Assembly: GCF_905120355.1 (NCBI RefSeq)
Contig: NZ_CAJHOB010000006.1
Location: 62,001-126,000, forward strand
Length of the DNA: 64,000 nucleotides
DNA from: Azonexus hydrophilus
GTDB taxonomy: Bacteria; Pseudomonadota; Gammaproteobacteria; Burkholderiales; Rhodocyclaceae
Direction of reading: 5' to 3'
Position 1 is the stretch's first letter, and each line of letters starts with the position of its first letter. The position numbers were made by a program, and so were the translations under genes. Below are positions 8,633 through 28,090 of the stretch, one piece after another. The notes beneath the pieces are model-generated. The model was not told where the DNA came from, did not search any database, and worked only from the letters and a program-made list of their open reading frames with translations.

Positions 8633-9250
8633 TCAGTGTTTGCTGTTTTCTTCGATTTCCTCCCAGCCGGTAATCATCGCCTTGATGTGCGCGAAGACGG
8701 TGTGGCCGGTGGTGGTGAGGTAGACGTGCACGAAAAAGAAGGCAGTGATGAGAAATGCGCCCAGGGTATGGGTTACGGCCACCCACTCCAGACTCAGGTA
8801 TTTGTCCAGCCCGAAATTTCCCCATTCGGCATAAAACAGGTAGAGCAGGCCAGAGCCCCAGATCAGCGGTGAGATCACCGCCAGCAACGCGAGGTAGGTC
8901 AGGCGTTGCAGCGGATTGTGTTTCTGGGCAGCAGTTTTGTGGTAGGGCGAATGTTCCCCCTTGAATATTCCGTAAGCGTAAAAACGGATCATGGCCGGGA
9001 TGTTCTGCAGTGAAGGCAGGTATTGCCGCCATTCGCCGGTGGTGAATTGCCAGAAAATGGTGAAGGCCCAGATGACGAGCAGGGTCCACGCGGCCAGACT
9101 GTGCCAGTGCACCGCCTGGCCGAAACCGAGCAGGTGATAACTGCCGTGTACTTCAAAACCGGTAACCATCATGGCGATGATGAGCAGGGCTTGTGACCAG
9201 TGCCAGAAACGCTCGTAGCGCTTGTAGATGTAGATGCGTTCGGCGCTCAT
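8633..9250 (-). CDS. Membrane b-type cytochrome (b561/Ni-hydrogenase cytochrome b-like)
   Basis: 205 residues. ATG at 9250 is preceded by AAGGAG and overlaps the octaheme gene stop by 4 bases; the longer reading frame upstream is rejected. Four membrane helices are visible (about 18-38, 55-75, 118-138, 155-178). Candidate haem ligand histidines lie in RFWHWSQ, AVHWHS and VTHTLGAF/FVHVYL. The family usually exchanges electrons between quinones and a periplasmic redox partner. Translational coupling to the octaheme cytochrome strongly suggests it is that protein's membrane quinone module. Confidence 0.87.
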   Translation of the reverse strand: MSAERIYIYKRYERFWHWSQALLIIAMMVTGFEVHGSYHLLGFGQAVHWHSLAAWTLLVIWAFTIFWQFTTGEWRQYLPSLQNIPAMIRFYAYGIFKGEHSPYHKTAAQKHNPLQRLTYLALLAVISPLIWGSGLLYLFYAEWGNFGLDKYLSLEWVAVTHTLGAFLITAFFFVHVYLTTTGHTVFAHIKAMITGWEEIEENSKH

Positions 9251-10884
9251 TGTGCATTCTCCTTGCGGCGGCGGGTCAGGATGCGGATCAGTCCATGCAC
9301 GGTACTGCCGCCGATGGCGCCGACGATGGCGAGGGTGCCGAACAGATCGACCCAGCGATTGCGGTCGCGCCCGGGTAAGTACAGGTCGGTAATGGCTGCC
9401 AGGCGCCCTTGTTCGCCACGCATGTGGCACTCGGCGCAGGGAACGGCTTTTTCCTTGGGGGCAACCATGTGGGTGATGAACCAGTTCATGCGTGTTTCAA
9501 TGAAGCCGAACTTGCCACTGTAGGGCAGACCGGCATAATCCATACCAGCCTGAATCGACTTGGAGAAATCGTAGTTTTTCCACAACGACGTATCGTCGTC
9601 ACCGTATACGTGATTGACCACCAGGGTTTTGTTTTCTGTGTCGTAGGCCTGTTTGCCCAGCATTACCTTGAACGGCCAGATGCGGGCGTTGGGGTCTTGG
9701 GCCGAACCTTCTACCCGGTTGAGCTCGAGGACTTTGGTGTCGTCAATCCGGTCGGTAAAAGTGAGTTGATGTACGACGCCGTTGTACCACTTGTATTCCG
9801 GACGCACGTTTTCACCATAGGCAAAATCGCCTTTGGCAGCCGAATATTTCAGGTGGCCGTGGTCATCCTTGATGAACAGGGGCTTGCCGTTGGCATCCCT
9901 CTTGCCGGCGGTAGACCAGTCCCACAGGGTTTTTGTGGCGACACCTCCACGGGCAAATGCGGGAATGTGACAGGTCTGACAGGCGAGCTTGCCTGTGTGC
10001 ATGTTCAGCCTGGCTTGCTGGTGGGGCGAGCTGCTATGGCAGGATTCGCAGGTTGCCTGGTTGTGATCGTTCCGGGGCAGGTCGAGACCGTGCGGATCTT
10101 TGGCCGTTGCTGCATAGCGGCTGCCGGATGGCTGGTGGCTGTTGAACGTATGGCAATCAGAACAGACCATGTTGGCACCGTCTTTGGCCATGTGTACATC
10201 AAGTTCTTTCGGCGGGTTCTTCAAGGATGAATCGAGGTCGCCGTGCTTTACGGCATCTCCACCACCGCCGTTGAAGTGGCAGTTGCCGCAGTTGCTACGC
10301 CCTGATGGGCCGACATGCTGGGCAATATTGGTCAGATCGGGGGCCTTGAAGGATTTCGCGCCAGGCGGTCCTTCCATCGGCTCAAAACTGTCGATATCCT
10401 CGTACAGTGGATGGCCGGCGTTGGTGCTGAATTTCCGGTAAGTGCCAGTAGTGTCGTGGCAGGCCAGACAGTCGACATTTTCCTGGTTGCTGAAATCGAA
10501 GTTCTTGTCTGTCCAGCCGTAACCCGCGTGACAACTGGTGCAGCGGCTTTCGTTGGAAAGAATGGAGCCGCAGAAATTATTGGCGACCAGTTTTTTGCCC
10601 AGGGTTTTGTCAATGGTTGGATTCTTTGCTTCCCAGGTCCAGTGAATGCTTTTCATCACCTGGTGACCCGCTGTGTTGTGGCAACTCAGACAGGCTTTGG
10701 TGACTTCGGGGCCATTCTTGAAGGGACCTTTGAGCGCCTCCAGCGTACCGTGGTCAGTGGTGGCTTCGCGCTCGCTGTGAGCCGCTTTTCCTGCCTGCGG
10801 CACAGAGGGAATGTCTCTGGCATGGGTTGCAAGGGGGGCTAATGCCAGGCACAGCACTGCCGCCATCGCTACATGAATATTCAT
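9247..10884 (-). CDS. Octaheme c-type cytochrome, tetrathionate reductase (OTR) family, with C-terminal anchor
   Basis: 545 residues with a signal peptide (about 1-22). Eight CxxCH motifs are present: CLSCH, CTSCH, CLACH, CGNCH, CSDCH, CESCH, CQTCH and CAECH. Their order and the intervening segments (KSIHWTWEAKNP, NNFCGS) match the octaheme cytochromes related to Shewanella OTR, which reduce tetrathionate, nitrite or hydroxylamine in vitro. Near the C-terminus a hydrophobic segment (about 512-533) followed by RRRK suggests a membrane anchor, which soluble OTR lacks. It forms an operon with the b-type cytochrome and has an FNR-like box upstream. Physiological substrate unknown. Confidence 0.92.
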   Translation of the reverse strand: MNIHVAMAAVLCLALAPLATHARDIPSVPQAGKAAHSEREATTDHGTLEALKGPFKNGPEVTKACLSCHNTAGHQVMKSIHWTWEAKNPTIDKTLGKKLVANNFCGSILSNESRCTSCHAGYGWTDKNFDFSNQENVDCLACHDTTGTYRKFSTNAGHPLYEDIDSFEPMEGPPGAKSFKAPDLTNIAQHVGPSGRSNCGNCHFNGGGGDAVKHGDLDSSLKNPPKELDVHMAKDGANMVCSDCHTFNSHQPSGSRYAATAKDPHGLDLPRNDHNQATCESCHSSSPHQQARLNMHTGKLACQTCHIPAFARGGVATKTLWDWSTAGKRDANGKPLFIKDDHGHLKYSAAKGDFAYGENVRPEYKWYNGVVHQLTFTDRIDDTKVLELNRVEGSAQDPNARIWPFKVMLGKQAYDTENKTLVVNHVYGDDDTSLWKNYDFSKSIQAGMDYAGLPYSGKFGFIETRMNWFITHMVAPKEKAVPCAECHMRGEQGRLAAITDLYLPGRDRNRWVDLFGTLAIVGAIGGSTVHGLIRILTRRRKENAQ

Positions 10885-12851: not shown

Positions 12852-12932
12852 GGCGAAATAAGTTCGCAGCAGAAAAAAACCGGCGCTAGCACCGGTTTTT
12901 TGTTGTCGCGAAGAACGCATCAGCCTGTCAGC
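12852..12932. repeat. 80-bp direct repeat, right copy (terminator plus acetyltransferase 3' end)
   Basis: Partner of 11579-11658. It contains a slightly imperfect version of the same terminator and the last codons of the minus-strand acyl-CoA synthetase/acetyltransferase gene (stop at 12920-12922), so this is probably the original location. Confidence 0.9.
12873..12901. terminator. Bidirectional terminator between convergent genes
   Basis: A run of A, ACCGG-CGCTAGCA-CCGGT, then a run of T. It serves the plus-strand nitronate monooxygenase gene and the convergent minus-strand gene ending at 12920. Confidence 0.8.
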
Positions 12933-15616
12933 GGCTTGACTACACGCTTTACCGCGGTGTCGTCAGGGTGCGGATGAATGGAGAAGCCGAGACTGGTCAT
13001 CAGGCGGAACATCTTGCTGTTGGTTGACAGCACGTCACCTACCACGGCGCGATAGCCTTTGGTGCGGGCGCAGTCGATGATGGCCGTCATCAAGCGGCGG
13101 CCAACACCGCATTTCTGCCAGTCGTCACCGACGGCGAGGGCGAATTCCACGGATTCTCCATCCGGGTTGAGAACGTAGCGGGCGACGCCGATCTGTTCGT
13201 CCTTGCCGGTTTCTTCATTTTGAATGGTGGCGATCATCGCCATTTCGCGGTCGTAGTCAATCTGCGTGAAGCGGACCAGCATGGTCTGCGTCAGCTCGCG
13301 CAGCGTATCCATGAAGCGGTAGTAGCGGGATTCGTCGGACATGCTCTTGACGAATTCCTGCTCCATTTCAGCGTCTTCCGGGCGGATCGGACGAATGATG
13401 ACCTGCTTGCCGTCGTTCATTGTCCATTCCTGGATCAGATGCACCGGGTAGGGGTAGATCGCCATATGCGAGTAGCGGTCGCCAGACGTATTGGTGGCGT
13501 GGTCAATGACGATGCGTGCATCAGCAGCGATGGCGCCATGCTCGTCGACGATCAGCGGATTGAGGTCCATTTCAACAATCCACGGCAACTCGCAGACCAT
13601 TTCGGAGATGCACAGGAGAACTTCCTTCAGTGCGTCACGATCCACGGGCGGCAGGTTGCGGAACTGATCGAGTATTTTCGACGTGCGGGTCGATTCGATC
13701 AGGTCCTTGGCCAGGAATTTGTTGAGCGGCGGCAAGGCGACCGAGCGGTCGGAGAAGATTTCGTTGTCGAAACCGCCGGCACCGAAAGTGATGACCGGCC
13801 CGAAGATTGGATCGCGCAAGACGCCGATCATGATTTCGCGGCCGTGCGGGCGGGACAGGAAGGGTTCGATCGAGACGCCGTTGATCTTGGCTTCCGGATG
13901 GCGCTTTTGCACGGTGTCCACGATGTCGTGGTAGGCATTGCGGACAGCCGGGGCATTGAGGATGTTCAGGCGGACGCCGCCGGCATCCGATTTGTGGCGC
14001 AGATCGGGGGAGTCCACCTTCATGGCCACCGGGAAACCGATCTGTTCCGCCAGCAGCAAGGCTTCGGTGGCGGTGCGGGCGACCATGGTCTGGGCAACTG
14101 GCACCTTGAAGGCGCGCAGGATGGCCTTTGATTCCATTTCCGACAGCACCTTGCGCCGCTCGGCGAGCAGGGCCTCGATCAGCATCTTGGCCCCTTCGGT
14201 TTCGGGGCGGCCATGCTGGCGGGTGGGTTCCGGCGTCTGCAGCAACAATTTCTGGTTACGGTAATACTTGGAAATGTGATGGAACAGTTCGATGGCGGTT
14301 TCCGGCATGCGGAAGGCTGGGATCCCCGAATCCTCGAGCAGTTTGCGCGCCTCAGCGACCTGTGCTTCACCCATCCAGCAGCAGATGACACGCCGGTTGA
14401 GCTTGTCGGAAATGCTGATGATGGCCTGGGCCACGCCCATGGGGTCGGTCATGGCTTGTGGTGACAGCATGACCAGGGTGCTGTCCACGTTGGGGTCCTG
14501 CGAAATGGCGAGCAGGGCGTCACGGTAGCGTTCCGGCGTGGCATCACCGCCAATGTCGATGGGATTATTGTGCGACCAATGGGGAGGCAGCACCTTGTTC
14601 AGGTTGCCGATGGTTTCGGTAGACAGGGCGGCGAGCGGAATGTCCAGATCTCCGGCACGGTCGGCGGCCATGGCGCCCGGGCCGCCACCGTTGGTGATGA
14701 TGGCCAGGCGGTCGCCTTGCGGCCGGAATTTGGAGGCCAGCGCTTTGGCGGCATAGAACAGTTGGCCAACGTTCTTAACACGGACGACGCCGGCGCGGCG
14801 GATGGCAGCATCGAACACGGTGTCGGAGACGGCACTCATCCCCGAGTGCACACGCGCCGCGTGCGAGCCAGCCTCATGTCGGCCGGCCTTGAGCAGGATG
14901 ATCGGCTTGATCCGTGCCGCCGAGCGCAGAGCGCTCATGAAGCGGCGGGCGTGGCGGATGCCTTCGACGTACATCAGGATGTAGTGGGTGCGACTGTCGT
15001 AGATCAGGTAGTCGAGGATTTCCCCGAAGTCGACATCGGCGGTCATGCCCAGCGAGATCACCGACGAGAAGCCGACCTGGTTGGCCTTGGCCCAGTCGAG
15101 CACGGCCGAGCACATCGCACCGGATTGCGAGACCAGAGCGAGATTGCCTGGATCGGCGGTGATCTTGGTGAAGGTGGCATTCAGGCCCAGTTCGGGGCGG
15201 ATGATGCCCAGGCAGTTGGGGCCGAGTACACGCACGCTGTAGGAGCGGGCGATTTCCATCACCTTGCGTTCCAGCGCGGCGCCAACGTGGCCACTTTCGG
15301 AAAAGCCGGCGGCGATGATGATGACGTTCTTGACGCCGCTGCGGCCGCACTGTTCGATGATCTGCGGCACCGTTTGCGGGCGGGTGGCGATCACCGCCAT
15401 TTCGACGCGGGCGCCGATTTCCTCGATCGATTTGTAGGCCGGCTGGCCCTGGATGGTCTCATGCTTGGGGTTGATGGCGTACAGACGCCCTTTGTAACCG
15501 GAGCTGAGGATGTTTTTGAAAATGATGTTGCCAACCGAATTTTCCCGATCCGAAGCACCGATGACGGCAACGGACTTGGGTTCGAATAGTGCGGTCAGGT
15601 AATGCTGTTCCAACAT
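12920..15616 (-). CDS. ADP-forming acyl-CoA synthetase / GNAT protein acetyltransferase (Pat/YfiQ-like)
   Basis: 898 residues in three parts: a CoA-binding Rossmann domain (about 1-130, VAVIGASDRENSVGN), a succinyl-CoA ligase-like and ATP-grasp region (about 130-690, with DSPDLRHKSDAGGVRLN and the GGFDNEIFSD segment), and a C-terminal GNAT domain (about 725-890, VGDDWQKCGVGRRLM as the acetyl-CoA loop). This is the architecture of YfiQ/PatZ lysine acetyltransferases, which modify metabolic enzymes such as acetyl-CoA synthetase. The conserved catalytic His of active ADP-forming synthetases is not obvious at GPNCLG...SQSGAM, so I favour the acetyltransferase role. It has its own promoter region near 15620-15690. 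Confidence 0.88.
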   Translation of the reverse strand: MLEQHYLTALFEPKSVAVIGASDRENSVGNIIFKNILSSGYKGRLYAINPKHETIQGQPAYKSIEEIGARVEMAVIATRPQTVPQIIEQCGRSGVKNVIIIAAGFSESGHVGAALERKVMEIARSYSVRVLGPNCLGIIRPELGLNATFTKITADPGNLALVSQSGAMCSAVLDWAKANQVGFSSVISLGMTADVDFGEILDYLIYDSRTHYILMYVEGIRHARRFMSALRSAARIKPIILLKAGRHEAGSHAARVHSGMSAVSDTVFDAAIRRAGVVRVKNVGQLFYAAKALASKFRPQGDRLAIITNGGGPGAMAADRAGDLDIPLAALSTETIGNLNKVLPPHWSHNNPIDIGGDATPERYRDALLAISQDPNVDSTLVMLSPQAMTDPMGVAQAIISISDKLNRRVICCWMGEAQVAEARKLLEDSGIPAFRMPETAIELFHHISKYYRNQKLLLQTPEPTRQHGRPETEGAKMLIEALLAERRKVLSEMESKAILRAFKVPVAQTMVARTATEALLLAEQIGFPVAMKVDSPDLRHKSDAGGVRLNILNAPAVRNAYHDIVDTVQKRHPEAKINGVSIEPFLSRPHGREIMIGVLRDPIFGPVITFGAGGFDNEIFSDRSVALPPLNKFLAKDLIESTRTSKILDQFRNLPPVDRDALKEVLLCISEMVCELPWIVEMDLNPLIVDEHGAIAADARIVIDHATNTSGDRYSHMAIYPYPVHLIQEWTMNDGKQVIIRPIRPEDAEMEQEFVKSMSDESRYYRFMDTLRELTQTMLVRFTQIDYDREMAMIATIQNEETGKDEQIGVARYVLNPDGESVEFALAVGDDWQKCGVGRRLMTAIIDCARTKGYRAVVGDVLSTNSKMFRLMTSLGFSIHPHPDDTAVKRVVKPLTG

Positions 15617-15691
15617 GAGACCCTCTCAACAAGCGGATGTGTCAGGAATTTTGGCGTGCGGAATTGTCGCATATCCGCACAGCGATCAGGG

Positions 15692-16099
15692 TTATGGTGT
15701 GAGGCTGCAATCAAGCAGGAAAGATTGCGACAACGCCCGATGCACCGGACATTTATTGGCAATTTCCAGCAGCCGTTGACGCTGCTCGGCGGTCAGGTCG
15801 CCATCCAGGGTGATGCTGCGCTGGATGCAGTCGCGTTTGACGCCATCGATCTCGACCTTGTGGTGTGAGAGTTCGACCGTGACCTGGCGCAGAGGTAATT
15901 CCTTGCGCTCGGCGTACATGCGCAAGGTCATCGAGGTGCAGGCACCCAGACCGGACATGATGAAATCGAAAGGGGCCGGGCCGGCATCAGCCCCTCCCAT
16001 GTCGACGGGTTCGTCGGCGAGATACTGATGCTTGCCGGCACGGATTTCCTGTTGATACCGGCCCTGGCCATTTTCCTTGACGGTGACTGTGCTCGACAT
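15692..16099 (-). CDS. OsmC/Ohr family peroxiredoxin-like protein
   Basis: 135 residues. ATG 16099 is chosen because GGAG lies 7 bases upstream; longer starts at 16111 and 16132 are possible. The two redox cysteines are in GLGACTSMTLRMYAERK and ANKCPVHRAL, the OsmC pattern, in which a Cys pair reduces organic peroxides. MGGADAGPAPFD corresponds to the conserved GxxxGPSP-type loop before the first cysteine. It lies 50 bases downstream of the AckA-PduL fusion on the same strand and may be cotranscribed. Confidence 0.88.
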   Translation of the reverse strand: MSSTVTVKENGQGRYQQEIRAGKHQYLADEPVDMGGADAGPAPFDFIMSGLGACTSMTLRMYAERKELPLRQVTVELSHHKVEIDGVKRDCIQRSITLDGDLTAEQRQRLLEIANKCPVHRALSQSFLLDCSLTP

Positions 16100-16183
16100 G
16101 ATGCGCTCCATGAATGAACCAGCAGGCATCATACCGGTTCTGCTTGCGCACGGTGTGTCCCGTCGCGGCGGTAACTGTTTCGG

Positions 16184-18499
16184 CTAAGGCCGGCTCTCGA
16201 TGCCCTCGATGTACCCCAGCATGCCGGTGCGGATATTGCCGGCGTTGCCTTCGTCGGTATCGATATGCATGGCCAGGCGGAAAGCCGGATTCACGCGGAC
16301 GACGACGTCACCGAAAATGAGTTCCCGTTCACCGGCGATGCGCACGCGCACCACGGTGTTGTCACGCACCCGGAAACGCAGGGCGTCATCCGGCGACATG
16401 TGGATATGGCGTTGGGCGCAGATGACGCCGCGTTCGATCTGGGTGCTGCCGTGCGGTCCTTCGAGTGTCAGCCCGGGGGTGCCGGTGAGATCGCCCGACT
16501 GGCGGATGGGCGGCTGAACACCCAGCTTGAATTGCTCGGTCATGGCGATTTCGACCTGGGTTTCCTTGCGGGTCGGGCCAAGCACGCGCACGTTGGCAAT
16601 TCGCCCTTTGGGGCCGACCAGGTGCACCTTTTCCTCGCAGGCATACTGGCCGGGTTGAGACAATTCGTGCATCGGTGTCAGCTGATGGCCGGGGCCGAAC
16701 AAAGCTTCCACGTCGGCTTGCGAGAGGTGTACGTGGTGGGCGGAAATTTCCACCGGAATGGCCGGGGTATCTTCCGCCTGCGCTTCCTGCAGCAAGCTGT
16801 TGCGCTCGATGGCGCGCAATGCTTCCCAGGCGACCAGGCGCTCGTCGTCGTTGGCGATGACCATGATCTTGACCGGCGAGTCGTCGGCTGAAATCAGGGC
16901 GTGCGATTCGAATTTTCCGAGGTTCTTGCCCAGTGCGCGGTTCTTTTCCTCATCCAGGCGGATACCCATCCAGGCCAGTCCCTGGCACGCCAGGCTGCGC
17001 ACGGTGGCGCTGCTTTCACCGATGTCGCCAGTGAAGGCCAGAACGTCGATGCCGCCCATGGCTGCTGCGTAGGCACCGATGTTCTTGCGCACTTGGTAGC
17101 AGAAGGCTTTGTGTGCCAGCAAGGCGCGGTGGTCGCCTGCCGCAGCGGCTGCCTCGATGGCGTGAATGTCCCCGGAAATGCCGGAAATTCCCTTCATGCC
17201 GCTTTCGCAGTTGATCAGGTTCGACAGCGCTGCTGGTGTCATGCCGTGTGCTTCGATCAGGTGCAGCATGACTGCTGGGTCAATGCTGCCAGAGCGGCTG
17301 GGCATGATCAGGCCGTCAGTCGGTGTCATGCCCATGCTGGTGTCGACCGAGCGGCCATGGTCGATGGCGCACAGCGAGGCGCCGATGCCAAGATGGCAGG
17401 AGACGATTTCCAGCTCACCCAGCGGCCGGCCTAGCACTTCCGCCGCCTTCAGCGATACGTAGCGGTGCGAACTGCCGTGAAAGCCGTAGCGGCGGATGCC
17501 ATGCTGCTTGTACAACTCGTAGGGCAAGCCATAAAGGTACGCGTAGGGGGCGAGTGTCTGGTGAAAGGCTGTGTCGAATACGGCGACCTGCGGTACGTTG
17601 GGAAATGCTTTTTGTGCCACGCGGATGCCGGCGATATTGGCCGGGTTGTGCAGCGGCGCAAAGGTCGCCAGTGTTTCGATGTCGGCAATCACCTCTGGTG
17701 TGATGACGACGGCGCTGGCAAAGCGGTTGCCGCCATGCACCACGCGGTGGCCGATCGCCACGACATCGGCCGGGTGGAAGGTGAACGCTTGACCGAGCAG
17801 GGCGGTCGCTTCGGTAATTGCAGCAAACAGGCCAGATAGCCTGAATTCGGAGCACTGCAGGGTTTTTTGTTGCGGCCCGACGCGGACCGTGAGATGGGCT
17901 GCAGGCGTATCCGCTGCTTCCACCACGCCGAGGATGTCGGCGCCGCTTTCGCGCGTGTCGTAGATGCCAAAATGAATCTGCTGCAAACCCACATTCAGGG
18001 CCACTACCTTGCCCGCCTGTGCGCTGTGCAGTGCGAGCAGGCCGGACCCGCCCAGTTGTTCCGCTTTTTCACTTGCCGTCATGGCGCGGGTGCGTTCTGC
18101 CAGTTGCCGAGAGAGATACGCCACGGCTTTCGGATTGGCCAGAATGTGTGAGGCAAACACGGTTTGCGGTACCAACAGGACAAAACAACGATTACCGGCA
18201 ATCACGTCGGCGGCGATTTTTTCCGCCGTCAGCAAGGCCATCACGCCAAACACATCACCCGGTCCCAATTGCGCCACGACGTGGCGGGAACCGGTGTTGT
18301 CGCTGGTTGAAACCTCGGCATGGCCACTGATCATCACCCCGAAATGCTGCGTTTCATCACCGGTTTCCAGCATTGCCTCATTGCCTTCGAATGTAGCCAG
18401 GCGGGAACGGGTGAGGATTTCCTCGATTTTTTCTGCCGAGAAACTGGAAAACAGGGGGACTTGTTCGAGAAAGAACTGTTTCAGATCAATGTCGCTCAT
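16184..18499 (-). CDS. Three-domain fusion: cNMP-binding-like, acetate kinase-like (AckA), PduL phosphotransacylase
   Basis: 771 residues, GGAG upstream. Residues 1-130 resemble a cyclic-nucleotide-binding fold (FSAEKIEEIL; LGPGDVFGVMALL), but the phosphate-binding cassette lacks the usual Glu and Arg. Residues 165-570 are an acetate kinase fold: HRVVHGG (251-257), FDTAFHQ (308), YGFHGSSHRYV (338) and Glu553 remain, but the first loop reads NVGLQQIH instead of NxGSSSxK, HLGNG is HLGIG, TRSGDID is SRSGSID, and FTGGIGEN is FTGDIGES. Residues 580-765 are PduL, with HHVHLS (588) and RHIHMS (697) zinc motifs. PduL swaps acyl-CoA and acyl-phosphate, and AckA makes ATP from acyl-phosphate. The kinase may be altered or inactive. 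Confidence 0.92.
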   Translation of the reverse strand: MSDIDLKQFFLEQVPLFSSFSAEKIEEILTRSRLATFEGNEAMLETGDETQHFGVMISGHAEVSTSDNTGSRHVVAQLGPGDVFGVMALLTAEKIAADVIAGNRCFVLLVPQTVFASHILANPKAVAYLSRQLAERTRAMTASEKAEQLGGSGLLALHSAQAGKVVALNVGLQQIHFGIYDTRESGADILGVVEAADTPAAHLTVRVGPQQKTLQCSEFRLSGLFAAITEATALLGQAFTFHPADVVAIGHRVVHGGNRFASAVVITPEVIADIETLATFAPLHNPANIAGIRVAQKAFPNVPQVAVFDTAFHQTLAPYAYLYGLPYELYKQHGIRRYGFHGSSHRYVSLKAAEVLGRPLGELEIVSCHLGIGASLCAIDHGRSVDTSMGMTPTDGLIMPSRSGSIDPAVMLHLIEAHGMTPAALSNLINCESGMKGISGISGDIHAIEAAAAAGDHRALLAHKAFCYQVRKNIGAYAAAMGGIDVLAFTGDIGESSATVRSLACQGLAWMGIRLDEEKNRALGKNLGKFESHALISADDSPVKIMVIANDDERLVAWEALRAIERNSLLQEAQAEDTPAIPVEISAHHVHLSQADVEALFGPGHQLTPMHELSQPGQYACEEKVHLVGPKGRIANVRVLGPTRKETQVEIAMTEQFKLGVQPPIRQSGDLTGTPGLTLEGPHGSTQIERGVICAQRHIHMSPDDALRFRVRDNTVVRVRIAGERELIFGDVVVRVNPAFRLAMHIDTDEGNAGNIRTGMLGYIEGIESRP

Positions 18500-18589
18500 G
18501 CGATGGCTCCGGAAAGACAGGATATTCGGTGGGGTGCTTTGCTCGCCGGCAAGCTCGGGCGAAGCAGCAATTCAGCAAACCATAAGGGA

Positions 18590-18614
18590 TATTATGCTGC
18601 AACGCAACATAATA
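18590..18614. promoter_or_regulatory. Palindromic operator upstream of the AckA-PduL fusion
   Basis: Arms TATTATG and CATAATA enclose an inner TGC-AAC-GCA dyad, giving a 25-base interrupted palindrome about 90 bases before the fusion gene. Its core ATGCTGCAACGCA (18594-18606) differs at only two positions from the core in the phaR promoter at 25305-25317. It fits the CTGC-N3-GCAG type of site reported for PhaR, so PhaR control is inferred. Confidence 0.6.
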
Positions 18615-18719
18615 GTCTTGCCATCGTTATCGCTGGCTACGCAACGGTGTTGGTTTTTCCCGCCAAGGACGCGGGAAGTCTCGATTGCGGATGGGGAAAT
18701 ATGTCATGTGGGAAACTGT

Positions 18720-18746
18720 TTGACTTGCATATGGCATGCGTATAGT
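18720..18746 (+). promoter_or_regulatory. Candidate promoter of the 75-residue gene
   Basis: TTGACT (18720-18725) and TATAGT (18741-18746) with a 15-base gap, slightly short for sigma-70, about 40 bases before the ATG at 18785. Confidence 0.35.
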
Positions 18747-18784
18747 GTTCGCGCCTGCGGGTTCTGATATTTCCTGGAGGTGGT

Positions 18785-19012
18785 ATGGCGGCAAACGAGA
18801 GCAGTAAACCCCGAGGGCGGAAAAGCAAAACGATACCGAAAAAGCGGGGCGATTACATTGCGGCTGCGCGCTTCAATGACAACCAAACGCAGCTGTATTT
18901 TGTGCGCAATGCCGATGATATCAACGACGCGCGGCGCATGGTGCTGGAGGAAGTGGGGTACGAGAATGTGCGCTGTCTACTGGTTTCTGAACGCAAGACG
19001 GACAACGGGTAG
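18785..19012 (+). CDS. Small basic hypothetical protein
   Basis: 75 residues; TGGAGGTGG lies just before ATG 18785, a strong ribosome binding site. The N-terminal 25 residues are Lys/Arg-rich (KPRGRKSKTIPKKRG), and the remainder looks like a small alpha/beta unit (YIAAARFNDNQTQLYFVRNADDINDARRMV). The basic tail suggests nucleic-acid contact, but I recognise no family. It is divergent from the AckA-PduL fusion. Confidence 0.7.
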   Translation: MAANESSKPRGRKSKTIPKKRGDYIAAARFNDNQTQLYFVRNADDINDARRMVLEEVGYENVRCLLVSERKTDNG

Positions 19013-25342: not shown

Positions 25343-25888
25343 ATGTCTGAACCGGTTCGTTTGATCAAGAAGTACCCCAATCGTCGTCTTTATGACACCA
25401 AAACCAGTGCGTACATTACCTTGGGTGACGTCAAGGAGCTGGTGCTGAAATACGAAGGCTTCAAGGTGCTTGATGCCAAAACTGCCGAAGATCTGACGCG
25501 CAGCATCCTGCTGCAGATCATCCTGGAAGAGGAAACTGGCGGTGTGCCCCTGTTTTCCTGTGAATTGCTTTCCGGTTTCATCCGTTTCTACGGTAGTGCC
25601 TCGCAGAACATGCTGGGCCGCTACCTGGAAAACAACATGCGTACCTTTATCGAGTTCCAGCAGAAACTGCAGGAGCAGACGCGCAATGTCTATGGCAGCG
25701 ATGCCTCGCATATCCAGGCTGATTTCTGGAACCAGTTCCTCAACTTCCAGCAGCCGGCCATGCAGAATGTGATGTCTACCTACATGGATCAGTCGAAGAA
25801 AATGTTCCAGTCCATGCAGGATCAGCTGCAAACCCAGACGCGCTCAATGTTTACCGGCTTTCCGACGGCGGACAAGGAAGACAAGTAA
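25343..25888 (+). CDS. phaR: Polyhydroxyalkanoate synthesis regulator PhaR
   Basis: 181 residues from ATG 25343. The N-terminal domain starts VRLIKKYPNRRLYDTKTSAYITL, the PHB/PHA accumulation DNA-binding signature. A second PHB-accumulation domain follows (about 60-115: ILLQIILEEE, LFSCELLSGFIRFYG). The C-terminal 60 residues are Gln/Met-rich. PhaR represses phasin and its own gene and is released by PHA granules. No pha synthase gene is in the window. The promoter has an overlapping palindrome that recurs before the AckA-PduL fusion. Confidence 0.95.
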   Translation: MSEPVRLIKKYPNRRLYDTKTSAYITLGDVKELVLKYEGFKVLDAKTAEDLTRSILLQIILEEETGGVPLFSCELLSGFIRFYGSASQNMLGRYLENNMRTFIEFQQKLQEQTRNVYGSDASHIQADFWNQFLNFQQPAMQNVMSTYMDQSKKMFQSMQDQLQTQTRSMFTGFPTADKEDK

Positions 25889-25972: not shown

Positions 25973-28090
25973 TCAGCCGCCGAGCAGCAACATCAGTTCC
26001 CCTTGCGCGTTGTGTGGTTTGCTGCGCGGCTTGCGTCGCCGCTGGTAGTGCCCGTTGCCGTCCATGTCCCAGTTCAGCTGATTGTCCTGCAGGTAAGGCT
26101 TCAGGCCTTCGTTGATGACCCGCTTTTTCAGTTTGGGATCGAGCATCGGGAAGGCGAGTTCGATGCGGCGGAAGAAATTGCGTTCCATCCAGTCGGCGGA
26201 GGAGAGATAAACCAGTTCCTGTCCGCCCGCGTAGAAATAAAACACCCGGTGGTGTTCCAGGAAGCGGCCGATGACCGAACAGACGTGGATGTTCTCCGAC
26301 AGACCGGGTACGCCGGGGCGCAGCATGCAGATGCCGCGCACGATCAGTTCAACCGTCACGCCAGCCTGTGAGGCGTCATAGAGCGCCTGGATGACTTCGC
26401 GTTCGACCAGCGAGTTCATCTTGGCGATGATGTGTGCCTTTTCGCCGCGTTTGGCAGCCTCCGTTTCGGCCTGGATGGCAGCGACGATATTCGGTTGCAG
26501 GGTGAACGGGGCCTGCCACAGATGGCGCAGGGTACGAGCCTTGCCTAGACCGGTCAGCTGCTTGAAGACTTCCGATACGTCGTGGGTGAGTTCTTCATTG
26601 GCGGTAAGCAGGCCGAAATCGGAATAGAGGCGGGCGGTACGCGGGTGGTAATTGCCGGTGCCGAGGTGGGCATAGTGGCGCAGCTGTCCGTCCTCACGGC
26701 GCACGATCAGGAGCGCTTTGGCGTGCACCTTGTAACCGACGACGCCATACACCACGTGTGCGCCGACCTGCTCGAGTTTGGTGGCCCAGCCGATGTTGGC
26801 TTCTTCGTCAAAGCGTGCCATCAGTTCCACTACTACCGTCACTGCCTTACCATTCTGCGCGGCGCGGATGAGCGATTCCATCAGTACCGAATCGGTGCCG
26901 GTGCGGTACACCGTCATCTTGATGGCGACCACGCTGGGGTCGACGGCGGCCTGGCTGAGCAGGTCGATGACCGGGACGAACGATTGGTATGGATGGTGCA
27001 GCAGGATGTCGCCACGGCGGATGCTGGCGAAAATGTTGCTTCCCTTGCCCAGGTTTTTCGGAATGCCGGGCAGGAAAGAGGAAAACTTCATGTCCGGGCG
27101 GTCCACCCGGTCTGGCACCTGCATCAGGCGGACCAGGTTGACCGGGCCATTGACCCGGTAAAGGTCGACCTCCTGCAGCCCGAACTGGGCGAGCAGGAAA
27201 TCGGTGATGGGGGGCGAGCAGTTGTTGGCGACTTCGAGCCGAACGGCATCGCCAAAATGGCGCTGCGGCAATTCTCCCTGCAGCTTGGTGCGCAGATTGG
27301 TGATTTCCTCTTCATCGACGAATAGATCGGAGTTGCGGGTGGCGCGGAACTGGTAGCAGCCCAGCACGCTCATGCCGACAAACAGCTCGTTGACGAACTC
27401 GTGCAGGATGGACGAAAGAAAAACAAATCCGTAAGCACAGCCGGCAAGTTCCTCCGGCAGCTGGATGACTCGCGGCAGGACGCGCGGCGCCTGGACGATG
27501 GCGATCTTGGAGCTGCGGCCGAAGGCATCCTTGCCTTCCAGTTCCACAGCAAAATTAAGACTCTTGTTGAGTACGCGCGGGAAGGGGTGCGACGGATCGA
27601 GTCCGATCGGGGTTAGGACCGGCACCATTTCGCGCTGGAAAAAATTGCGTATCCACTCTCGTTGCGCTTCATTCCAGGCCGCGCGGGGGAAAAAGCGAAT
27701 ACCTTCCTGCGCCAGCGCGGGCAGAATGACTTCGTTCAACAGAGCGTACTGTTCCTCGACGATGGCGTGCGTTTCAGCGGCGACCAGACGAAAGGTCTCC
27801 TGCGCGGTCTTGCCATCGATGGTGGCGAGCGACATCTGTGAGCGAATCTGCTCTTTCAGCCCGGAGACACGGATCTCGAAAAATTCGTCGAGATTGCTGG
27901 AGACGATGGAAAGGAAACGCAGTCGTTCCAGCAGCGGTATCCGTTCATCAGCAGCCTGTGCCAGCACCCGGCGGTTGAATGCCAGCAGGCACAGTTCACG
28001 GTTGAGGTAGTTCTGTGGCGGGAAGCGAGGCGGAGCAACGGGAATCATGGCGCATGGATTGGAGGGCAATGGCGCAAGTATAGGCGTCAT
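25973..28090 (-). CDS. ppk1: Polyphosphate kinase 1
   Basis: 705 residues from ATG 28090; an ATG at 28048 is also possible, and no clear ribosome binding site decides. After a 25-residue extension comes NYLNRELCLLAFNRRVL, the PPK N domain. The phospholipase D-like catalytic region shows KVHAKALLIVRRED and the autophosphorylated His in AHLGTGNYHPRTARLYSDF (about 475), and a second His loop is in VCSVIGRFLEHHRVFYF. It makes polyphosphate from ATP at the membrane. Next to phaR it suggests linked carbon and phosphate storage, though the two genes converge and are probably independent. Confidence 0.95.
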   Translation of the reverse strand: MTPILAPLPSNPCAMIPVAPPRFPPQNYLNRELCLLAFNRRVLAQAADERIPLLERLRFLSIVSSNLDEFFEIRVSGLKEQIRSQMSLATIDGKTAQETFRLVAAETHAIVEEQYALLNEVILPALAQEGIRFFPRAAWNEAQREWIRNFFQREMVPVLTPIGLDPSHPFPRVLNKSLNFAVELEGKDAFGRSSKIAIVQAPRVLPRVIQLPEELAGCAYGFVFLSSILHEFVNELFVGMSVLGCYQFRATRNSDLFVDEEEITNLRTKLQGELPQRHFGDAVRLEVANNCSPPITDFLLAQFGLQEVDLYRVNGPVNLVRLMQVPDRVDRPDMKFSSFLPGIPKNLGKGSNIFASIRRGDILLHHPYQSFVPVIDLLSQAAVDPSVVAIKMTVYRTGTDSVLMESLIRAAQNGKAVTVVVELMARFDEEANIGWATKLEQVGAHVVYGVVGYKVHAKALLIVRREDGQLRHYAHLGTGNYHPRTARLYSDFGLLTANEELTHDVSEVFKQLTGLGKARTLRHLWQAPFTLQPNIVAAIQAETEAAKRGEKAHIIAKMNSLVEREVIQALYDASQAGVTVELIVRGICMLRPGVPGLSENIHVCSVIGRFLEHHRVFYFYAGGQELVYLSSADWMERNFFRRIELAFPMLDPKLKKRVINEGLKPYLQDNQLNWDMDGNGHYQRRRKPRSKPHNAQGELMLLLGG

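What the first reader, a model, noticed from the sequence alone, without database searches (positions are those of the whole stretch)
16184..18499. cNMP-like/AckA/PduL three-domain fusion with a substituted kinase active site
One 771-residue frame joins a cyclic-nucleotide-binding-like fold, an acetate kinase fold and a complete PduL phosphotransacylase. PduL makes acyl-phosphate from acyl-CoA and AckA would make ATP, so the fusion could channel acetyl-phosphate. Yet the kinase part has lost key residues: NxGSSSxK is NVGLQQIH, HLGNG is HLGIG, TRSGDID is SRSGSID, FTGGIGEN is FTGDIGES, while HRVVHGG, FDTAFH, HGSSH and the late Glu are kept. The sensor part lacks the usual cNMP-binding Glu and Arg. 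It may be an inactive scaffold, an enzyme with another phosphoryl donor (for example diphosphate), or a regulated switch.
Basis: partly seen in the sequence, partly recalled or inferred. Interest (0 to 1): 0.82.

Follow-up and report, generated by a model that had tools for sequence, protein, structure and literature searches.

The report
PHB-linked PduL with altered acetate kinase
A group of bacteria carries one protein that joins a sensor-like domain, an acetate kinase that has lost its ATP-side residues but kept its acetyl-phosphate pocket, and an intact-looking CoA-handling enzyme, and its gene bears the same DNA box as genes for storage-polymer (PHB) granule proteins, which makes it a good test case for how this enzyme family chooses its phosphate donor.

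Summary
In detail: window 16184-18499 (-) is one intact 771-aa frame with cNMP-binding, acetate kinase (AckA) and PduL domains. The fusion is in 33 of 36 genus genomes, one of them split at contig ends, so it is no artefact.

The kinase change is directional. Of 64 AckA columns invariant in 13 canonical sequences, 9 are replaced in this clade; 7 of these are nucleotide/metal-side residues (Ser10, Ser12, Lys14, Asn211, Gly239, Gly331, Glu384), while acyl and phosphoryl-transfer residues stay. A sister three-domain protein has a canonical kinase. PduL zinc ligands are present.

New: the promoter carries TGYTGC-N3-GCARCA (71 of 76 regions with at most one mismatch; 0.19 expected). The same box precedes phasin genes of the genus (27 of 39) and resembles the PhaR operator. 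PhaR itself is encoded at 25343-25888.

Best reading: a PHB-regulated phosphotransacetylase with a non-ATP, acetyl-phosphate-binding, probably regulatory kinase domain. A PPi- or polyphosphate-dependent kinase is not excluded. Enzyme activity and PhaR binding are untested.

The parts
16184..18499 (-). Three-domain fusion gene, 771 aa
   Evidence: ORF and translation; relatives
18149..18394 (-). CAP-type cNMP_binding domain, residues 36-117; cassette Glu is Val86, Arg is Lys94
   Evidence: PF00027 E 1.2e-14; residue counts
16829..18010 (-). Acetate kinase domain, residues 164-557, acyl-side residues kept
   Evidence: PF00871 E 9.1e-127; residue table
17972..17995 (-). PHOSPHATE1 motif NVGLQQIH, residues 169-176 (Ser10, Ser12, Lys14 lost)
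17381..17395 (-). PHOSPHATE2 motif HLGIG, residues 369-373 (Asn211 to Ile372)
17279..17302 (-). LOOP3 PSRSGSID, residues 400-407 (Gly239 to Pro400; Arg241 kept as Arg402)
17012..17035 (-). ADENOSINE motif FTGDIGES, residues 489-496 (Gly331 to Asp492)
   Evidence: pattern hit in own genome
16841..16852 (-). NDDE, residues 550-553 (metal Glu384 to Asp552)
16235..16756 (-). PduL domain, residues 582-755; zinc-ligand counterparts His589, His591, Glu650, His698, His700, His745
   Evidence: PF06130 E 1.8e-78; 5cuo alignment; conservation
18595..18609 (.). PhaR-like box TGTTGC-GTT-GCAGCA (read on the minus strand), at -110 to -96 from the fusion ATG
25343..25888 (+). phaR, polyhydroxyalkanoate synthesis repressor
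   Evidence: TIGR01848 147.1 bits against cut-off 109.45; PF07879 and PF05233
15692..16132 (-). OsmC-like gene directly downstream on the same strand; possibly co-transcribed, not kept beside the fusion in relatives
12920..15616 (-). ADP-forming acyl-CoA synthetase-like protein with C-terminal GNAT; same strand, possibly co-transcribed, not kept beside the fusion in relatives

Best explanation
The protein is a PHB-linked phosphotransacetylase. PduL interconverts acetyl-CoA + Pi and acetyl-phosphate + CoA. The fused AckA domain has lost the canonical ATP and metal side but still holds the acetate/acetyl-phosphate side, and most likely acts as an acetyl-phosphate-binding pseudokinase that regulates PduL or holds its product, with the CAP-type domain as a second input. 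Transcription is most likely switched by PhaR, so the protein would be made with phasins when PHB accumulates. Shown by sequence: domain make-up, complete PduL site, loss confined to the donor/metal half, purifying selection, an operator shared with phasin genes, phaR in the window. Inferred: that PduL is active, that acetyl-phosphate binds, that the kinase domain is regulatory rather than catalytic, that PhaR binds the box. I hold the broad part (not an ordinary ATP-dependent acetate kinase) at about 0.8 and the regulatory role at about 0.45.
For: Donor-side residues Ser10, Ser12, Lys14, Asn211, Gly239, Gly331 and Glu384 are replaced in 90 of 90 rows, while Arg91, Val93, His123, Asp148, Phe179, His180, Pro232 and Arg241 are kept in 90 of 90. 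Of 64 canonical-invariant columns 9 changed, 7 of them among 10 donor/metal positions (Fisher p 6.3e-6; positions listed after seeing the data). The PgAck counterpart of Glu384 is essential (E385A: no detectable activity; PMC6461089, passages). New residues are conserved (QHDD in 80 of 90 rows); AckA dN/dS median 0.21. PduL metal-ligand counterparts conserved. A separate acetate kinase hit is present in 31 of the 33 genus genomes with the fusion (counted). Box upstream of the fusion in 71 of 76 regions and of phasins in 27 of 39; 50 of 54 strict sites in 985 kb lie within 160 bp upstream of the fusion; PhaR in the window.
Against: Conserved transfer residues (Arg91, Asp148, His180, Arg241) are more than a mere ligand site needs and could mean catalysis. 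Asp for Glu384 may still bind metal. No ligand, activity or expression data. The own genome has 16 strict boxes; one precedes the fusion and one a phasin, and several of the rest lie inside long frames, so the box alone does not prove PhaR control. The two-domain AckA-PduL genes of Polaromonas, Paracoccus and S. meliloti lack the box directly upstream (best 9 of 12). Five of 76 fusion promoters score below 11 of 12.
Confidence: 0.45

Rival explanations
1. A PPi-, Pi- or polyphosphate-using acetate kinase fused to PduL: acetate + PPi (or polyP) gives acetyl-phosphate, then acetyl-CoA; or the reverse, acetyl-CoA + 2 Pi giving acetate + PPi.
For: The PPi-dependent Entamoeba enzyme also differs at Asn211, Gly239 and Gly331 (PMC4390882 and PMC5517563). 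Putative non-ATP acetate kinases of Anaerolineaceae carry Asp at 331, donor unknown; this clade has Asp in 82 and Glu in 7 of 90 rows. All transfer residues are kept. The own genome encodes a membrane pyrophosphatase family protein, and ppk1 lies in the window.
Against: No extra PHOSPHATE2 Gly and no Asp at 330, the two marks of the Entamoeba/Anaerolineaceae set. PHOSPHATE1 and Glu384 are lost as well, though the hallmark residues are said to be highly conserved in prokaryotic and eukaryotic enzymes (PMC4390882, passage). Changing single positions towards EhACK did not give PPi use (PMC5517563).
Confidence: 0.2
2. An acetyl-phosphate hydrolase: with the nucleotide site gone, water takes the phosphoryl or acyl group, so PduL plus this domain act as a Pi-dependent acetyl-CoA to acetate valve.
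For: The acyl-phosphate side, Asp148 and His180 are intact, the donor side is closed to ATP by inference; expression with phasins fits an overflow valve.
Against: No precedent was found in the searches made; loss of the metal Glu would also hurt hydrolysis; a futile loss of acetyl-CoA while PHB is made is costly.
Confidence: 0.14
3. Still an ATP-dependent, slow or tuned acetate kinase, channelling acetyl-phosphate from PduL to ADP.
For: Single MtACK changes at Asn211, Gly239 or Gly331 lower but do not abolish ATP use (PMC4390882); PduL-Ack fusions were proposed to channel (PMC4784909, passage).
Against: Seven donor/metal residues invariant in 13 canonical rows are replaced together, including the essential metal-side Glu; a separate acetate kinase hit exists in 31 of 33 genus genomes with the fusion.
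Confidence: 0.1

Closest known systems
PduL-Ack fusion proteins (noted in PMC4784909; here Polaromonas pPNAP02 L145 and a Paracoccus plasmid L147)
   Same: AckA and PduL domains in the same order in one chain
   Different: Those have canonical kinase motifs and no cNMP domain; this clade has the sensor domain and the rebuilt donor site
   Same: Same three Pfam domains in the same order; sister on the AckA tree, 100/100
   Different: Kinase motifs canonical: NCGSSSMK, HLGNG, GTRSG, FTGGIG, Glu384; cassette Glu kept
PPi-dependent acetate kinase of Entamoeba histolytica (4h0o) and the putative Anaerolineaceae enzymes
   Same: Asn211, Gly239 and Gly331 replaced
   Different: No extra PHOSPHATE2 Gly, no Asp at 330; here PHOSPHATE1 and Glu384 are replaced too
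PhaR operator of Ralstonia eutropha phaP1; PhaR regulon of Bradyrhizobium diazoefficiens
   Same: phaP1 target contains TGGTGC-GCC-GCAACA (PMC3570403), one base off TGYTGC-N3-GCARCA (counted by eye); pta and two ackA genes rise in a B. diazoefficiens phaR mutant (PMC10888616)
   Different: The target here is a fusion with a non-canonical kinase; binding is not shown

Membership tests
Acetate kinase family (fold/sequence) | PF00871 above cut-off over the whole domain | tested here: met
   423.4 bits against 22, profile 1-391 of 392
ATP-dependent acetate kinase | Donor/metal residues Ser10, Ser12, Lys14, Asn211, Gly239, Gly331, Glu384 | tested here: not met
   replaced in 90 of 90 rows; invariant in 13 canonical rows
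ATP-dependent acetate kinase | Acyl/transfer residues Arg91, Val93, His123, Asp148, Phe179, His180, Pro232, Arg241 | tested here: met
   90 of 90 rows for each
PPi-dependent acetate kinase (EhACK type) | Gly331 replaced | tested here: met
   D 82, E 7, H 1 of 90
PPi-dependent acetate kinase (EhACK type) | Extra Gly in PHOSPHATE2 and Asp next to position 331 | tested here: not met
   No insertion in HLGIGASLC; position 330 is Gly in 90 of 90; features from PMC5517563
PPi-dependent acetate kinase (EhACK type) | Activity with PPi/Pi | not testable with these tools
   needs assay
PduL phosphotransacylase | PF06130 plus zinc ligands and phosphate Arg | tested here: met
   262.8 bits; His589, His591, Glu650, His698, His700, His745 by alignment to 5cuo with a +32 numbering offset, conserved (one gap at His745); Arg644 invariant in 27 rows
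cNMP-binding domain | PF00027 above cut-off | tested here: met
   54.5 bits against 27.5
cNMP-binding domain | Phosphate-cassette Glu and Arg (recalled motif) | tested here: not met
   Val86 and Lys94 in the window; Glu in 3 of 89, Arg in 69 of 89 relatives' letters
PhaR regulon | PhaR-type box in the promoter, shared with phasin genes | tested here: met
   71 of 76 fusion promoters; 27 of 39 phasin genes
PhaR regulon | PhaR encoded in the genome | tested here: met
   TIGR01848 over cut-off at 25343-25888
PhaR regulon | PhaR binds and represses this promoter | not testable with these tools
   needs gel shift and phaR deletion

The most novel reading that the evidence does not exclude
A bacterial acetate kinase that uses pyrophosphate or polyphosphate instead of ATP, fused to PduL and switched on together with PHB: acetate + PPi/polyP + CoA to acetyl-CoA within one protein, feeding PHB.
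Probability: 0.15. Interest if true: 0.87.

Novelty: new variant of a known kind. Interest (0 to 1): 0.63.

Why it matters
The papers I read describe only one acetate kinase shown not to use ATP, and say that what decides the donor is unsolved. In this clade the donor half of the active site has been rebuilt while the acyl half is unchanged, and a three-domain sister with a canonical kinase exists, so the question can be tested on a matched pair. The operator shared with phasin genes ties the protein to PHB storage and suggests that the acetyl-CoA/acetyl-phosphate balance is adjusted when the polymer accumulates. Automatic names ('acetate kinase') are probably misleading for this clade.

Tried and rejected
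Conserved gene neighbours: none of the window's neighbours tested (cytochrome, NPD-like, acyl-CoA synthetase-GNAT, OsmC, LysR, azoreductase, pirin, MnmC, LysS) is regularly beside the fusion in 79 named loci; LysR-family hits at 30-31% in 4 and one MnmC hit (flanks of at most 6 kb). My clustering of flanking ORFs mixed in antisense frames and gave no constant partner.

Other promoter signals: FNR, CRP, NNR and specific sigma-54 patterns in 0 of 76 upstream regions; generic GG-N10-GC in 61 against 55.4 expected; an AT-rich pattern in 1 against 3.3. Sigma-70 and terminator scans of 15500-18800 gave no more than chance.

Gly331 variants elsewhere: I mistakenly searched the Glu form, then the Asp form. 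Of 8 and 2 matches in 249 phylum genomes each, only the window's own gene gave an acetate kinase hit (tblastn on the ten loci). The patterns are strict and would miss other spellings.

AlphaFold2 model of the whole chain from 27 close relatives: mean pLDDT 67, pTM 0.50, too poor to read pockets; no fold search was run and the second model job was not used.

Assembly artefact: rejected. Genus genomes without the full fusion: G004, G022 (79% and 74% complete) and G023, which shows only a 48-residue PduL-like match.

The first phasin script recognised no phasin because of a bad pattern and was repeated. The 449-gene control (17 strict, 31 with at most one mismatch) probably includes frames whose 'upstream' overlaps the fusion promoter, which I did not check; I lean instead. 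L072 and L075 were dropped from the promoter counts, and L114 and L115 were not put in. The 76 promoters come from related genomes and are not independent.

Statement on print: searches for acetate kinase + PduL + fusion (8 papers; passages read in three), acetate kinase + cyclic nucleotide-binding + phosphotransacetylase (0 papers), PPi-dependent acetate kinase, Dechloromonas + acetate kinase + phosphate acetyltransferase (listing only), acetate kinase/PduL/Rhodocyclales (15 of 43 listed), PhaR + acetate kinase + polyhydroxybutyrate + regulon and Accumulibacter/acetate kinase/pyrophosphate/acetyl phosphate (12 of 107 listed) showed no description of this three-domain protein in what I saw. 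Most subscription papers are not held.

Full report
What is there. The minus-strand frame 16184-18499 encodes 771 residues with an ATG start. Pfam gives cNMP_binding 36-117, Acetate_kinase 164-557 and PTAC (PduL) 582-755, all above cut-off; NCBIfam agrees for the kinase (TIGR00016) and PduL (NF011652). The fusion is full length in 32 of 36 genus genomes and split at contig ends in one more. Named records include Azonexus, Dechloromonas, Zoogloea, Thauera, Azoarcus, Propionivibrio and Rhodocyclus (79 distinct loci kept, 172 relatives found). PF06130 occurs in 8 of 399 order genomes, all 8 in this family and in frames of 777-951 aa. In the family it occurs in 45 of 199 genomes: 36 in long frames, 8 in short frames of 191-327 aa and one fragment. 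The own genome has one further acetate kinase and Pta-type matches at three places.

Which residues changed. I compared the kinase domain with MtACK (1tuu, rows), the genome's own separate AckA, AckA genes next to a separate PduL, two-domain AckA-PduL fusions and a three-domain protein, L135. In 90 aligned rows of the clade, Ser10, Ser12, Lys14, Asn211, Gly239, Gly331 and Glu384 are replaced in all 90, and Arg285 in 83. Arg91, Val93, His123, Asp148, Phe179, His180, Pro232 and Arg241 are kept in all 90. Of 64 columns invariant in 13 canonical rows, 9 are replaced in at least 90% of 29 clade rows: 7 of 10 nucleotide/metal positions, and 2 (Leu119, Thr382) of the other 54 (Fisher p 6.3e-6). I listed the 10 positions from the papers after seeing the alignment, so the p value describes rather than tests.

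What is known of those residues. Changing Asn211, Gly239 or Gly331 in MtACK lowers specific activity about 6- to 200-fold (PMC4390882, parts 1-2 of 4 and one passage). The PPi-dependent Entamoeba enzyme differs at the same positions; putative Anaerolineaceae enzymes have Asp at 331 with unknown donor (PMC5517563, parts 1-3 of 5). The PgAck counterpart of Glu384 is essential and a candidate metal ligand (PMC6461089, passages). The window family shares the 331 change, but has neither the extra PHOSPHATE2 Gly nor the Asp at 330, and has lost PHOSPHATE1 residues and Glu384 as well.

Derived, not decaying. On the AckA tree the 29 clade rows group together (100/100) on a stem of 1.08 changes per column, with L135, whose kinase motifs are canonical, as sister (100/100). 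The tool warned of long branches for other rows, and one row is identical to another. Median pairwise dN/dS is 0.28 (sensor), 0.21 (AckA) and 0.10 (PduL) over 27 sequences. The new residues are conserved: QHDD at positions 12/14/331/384 in 80 of 90 rows, RREN in 4 (L099-L102). Thirty-one of 33 genus genomes with the fusion show a separate acetate kinase hit; the two without, G003 and G021, are 76% and 74% complete (counted). So the fusion does not stand in for the housekeeping enzyme.

PduL and sensor. The rPduL metal ligands and Arg103 (PMC4784909, passages) correspond to His589, His591, Glu650, His698, His700, His745 and Arg644 (alignment, numbering offset worked out by hand). The His and Glu are conserved, with one gap at His745; Arg644 is invariant in 27 rows. 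The sensor's cassette Glu remains in 3 of 89 letters, in deep members such as L111 and L113 and in the sister L135; the basic residue is R or K in 76 of 89. The ancestral domain may have bound a cyclic nucleotide; the present one probably binds something else or nothing.

Regulation: the new finding. The 250 bp upstream of the fusion hold the dyad TGYTGC-N3-GCARCA: strict in 50 of 76 regions, at most one mismatch in 71 of 76, 0.19 expected from shuffles; 69 lie between -90 and -55. In 985 kb from 77 named loci, 50 of 54 strict sites lie within 160 bp upstream of the fusion. The window's site is 18595-18609, at -110, the only strict site in the window. The box also precedes phasin genes of the genus: 27 of 39 with at most one mismatch, 10 strict, 0.08 expected. 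Of the 12 without, 10 are second genes of phasin pairs. In the own genome one phasin (PF09361) has a strict box upstream and another (L184) has 11 of 12; its other phasins were not examined. A Paracoccus phasin two genes before an AckA-PduL gene has a strict box, but the AckA-PduL genes of Paracoccus, Polaromonas and S. meliloti do not. The R. eutropha phaP1 target contains TGGTGC-GCC-GCAACA (PMC3570403, passages). phaR lies in this window at 25343-25888, with only a 9-of-12 box upstream, no better than chance. In B. diazoefficiens, pta and two ackA genes rise in a phaR mutant (PMC10888616, passages). Against: of 16 strict sites in the own genome, one is at the fusion and one at a phasin, and several of the rest lie inside long frames (reversed-pattern control 2). 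PhaR binding is an inference.

How it most likely works (inference). When PHB granules titrate PhaR, the fusion is made together with phasins. PduL equilibrates acetyl-CoA and acetyl-phosphate. The kinase domain keeps the acetate/acetyl-phosphate side without a canonical ATP or metal site, and most likely regulates PduL or retains its product: 0.45. A PPi/polyP-using kinase gets 0.2 (a membrane pyrophosphatase family protein is encoded; ppk1 is next to phaR), an acetyl-phosphate hydrolase 0.14, residual ATP-dependent activity 0.1.

Novelty. PduL-Ack fusions were noted in 2016 with a channelling proposal (PMC4784909, passage). I found no description of the three-domain form, its lost nucleotide site or its PhaR-type box in the searches listed under Tried and rejected. 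I file it as a new variant of a known kind.

Noticed in passing
   Followed up: partly
L146:4998-6795 (S. meliloti plasmid pSmeRU11d): A two-domain AckA-PduL whose frame is broken within PduL, annotated as two genes.
   Followed up: no
L145:424-8456 (Polaromonas plasmid pPNAP02): Two-domain AckA-PduL beside fabI, a DUF3141 gene, a P-type ATPase and ppk2.
   Followed up: no
window 25973-28090 (-): Polyphosphate kinase 1 gene, convergent with phaR.
   Followed up: partly
window 12920-15616 (-): ADP-forming acyl-CoA synthetase-like protein with a C-terminal acetyltransferase domain, on the same strand downstream of the fusion; a possible protein acetyltransferase.
   Followed up: no
window 9247-10884 (-): Octaheme c-type cytochrome of the tetrathionate reductase family (TIGR04315).
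   Followed up: no
L111 and L113, about -101 and -88 before the fusion: These two deep members share a variant dyad TTGTGCGGTGCAGCA with shared flanking bases in place of the usual box.
   Followed up: no
L099-L102: Four donor-side positions differ together from the rest of the clade (12/14/331/384 = R, R, E, N instead of Q, H, D, D), which hints at a salt-bridge network across the old nucleotide cleft. Only L101 is named Thauera.
   Followed up: no
G023:C1:1542507-1542650: A genus genome without the fusion has a 48-residue match to the PduL end at 58% identity, perhaps a remnant.
   Followed up: no
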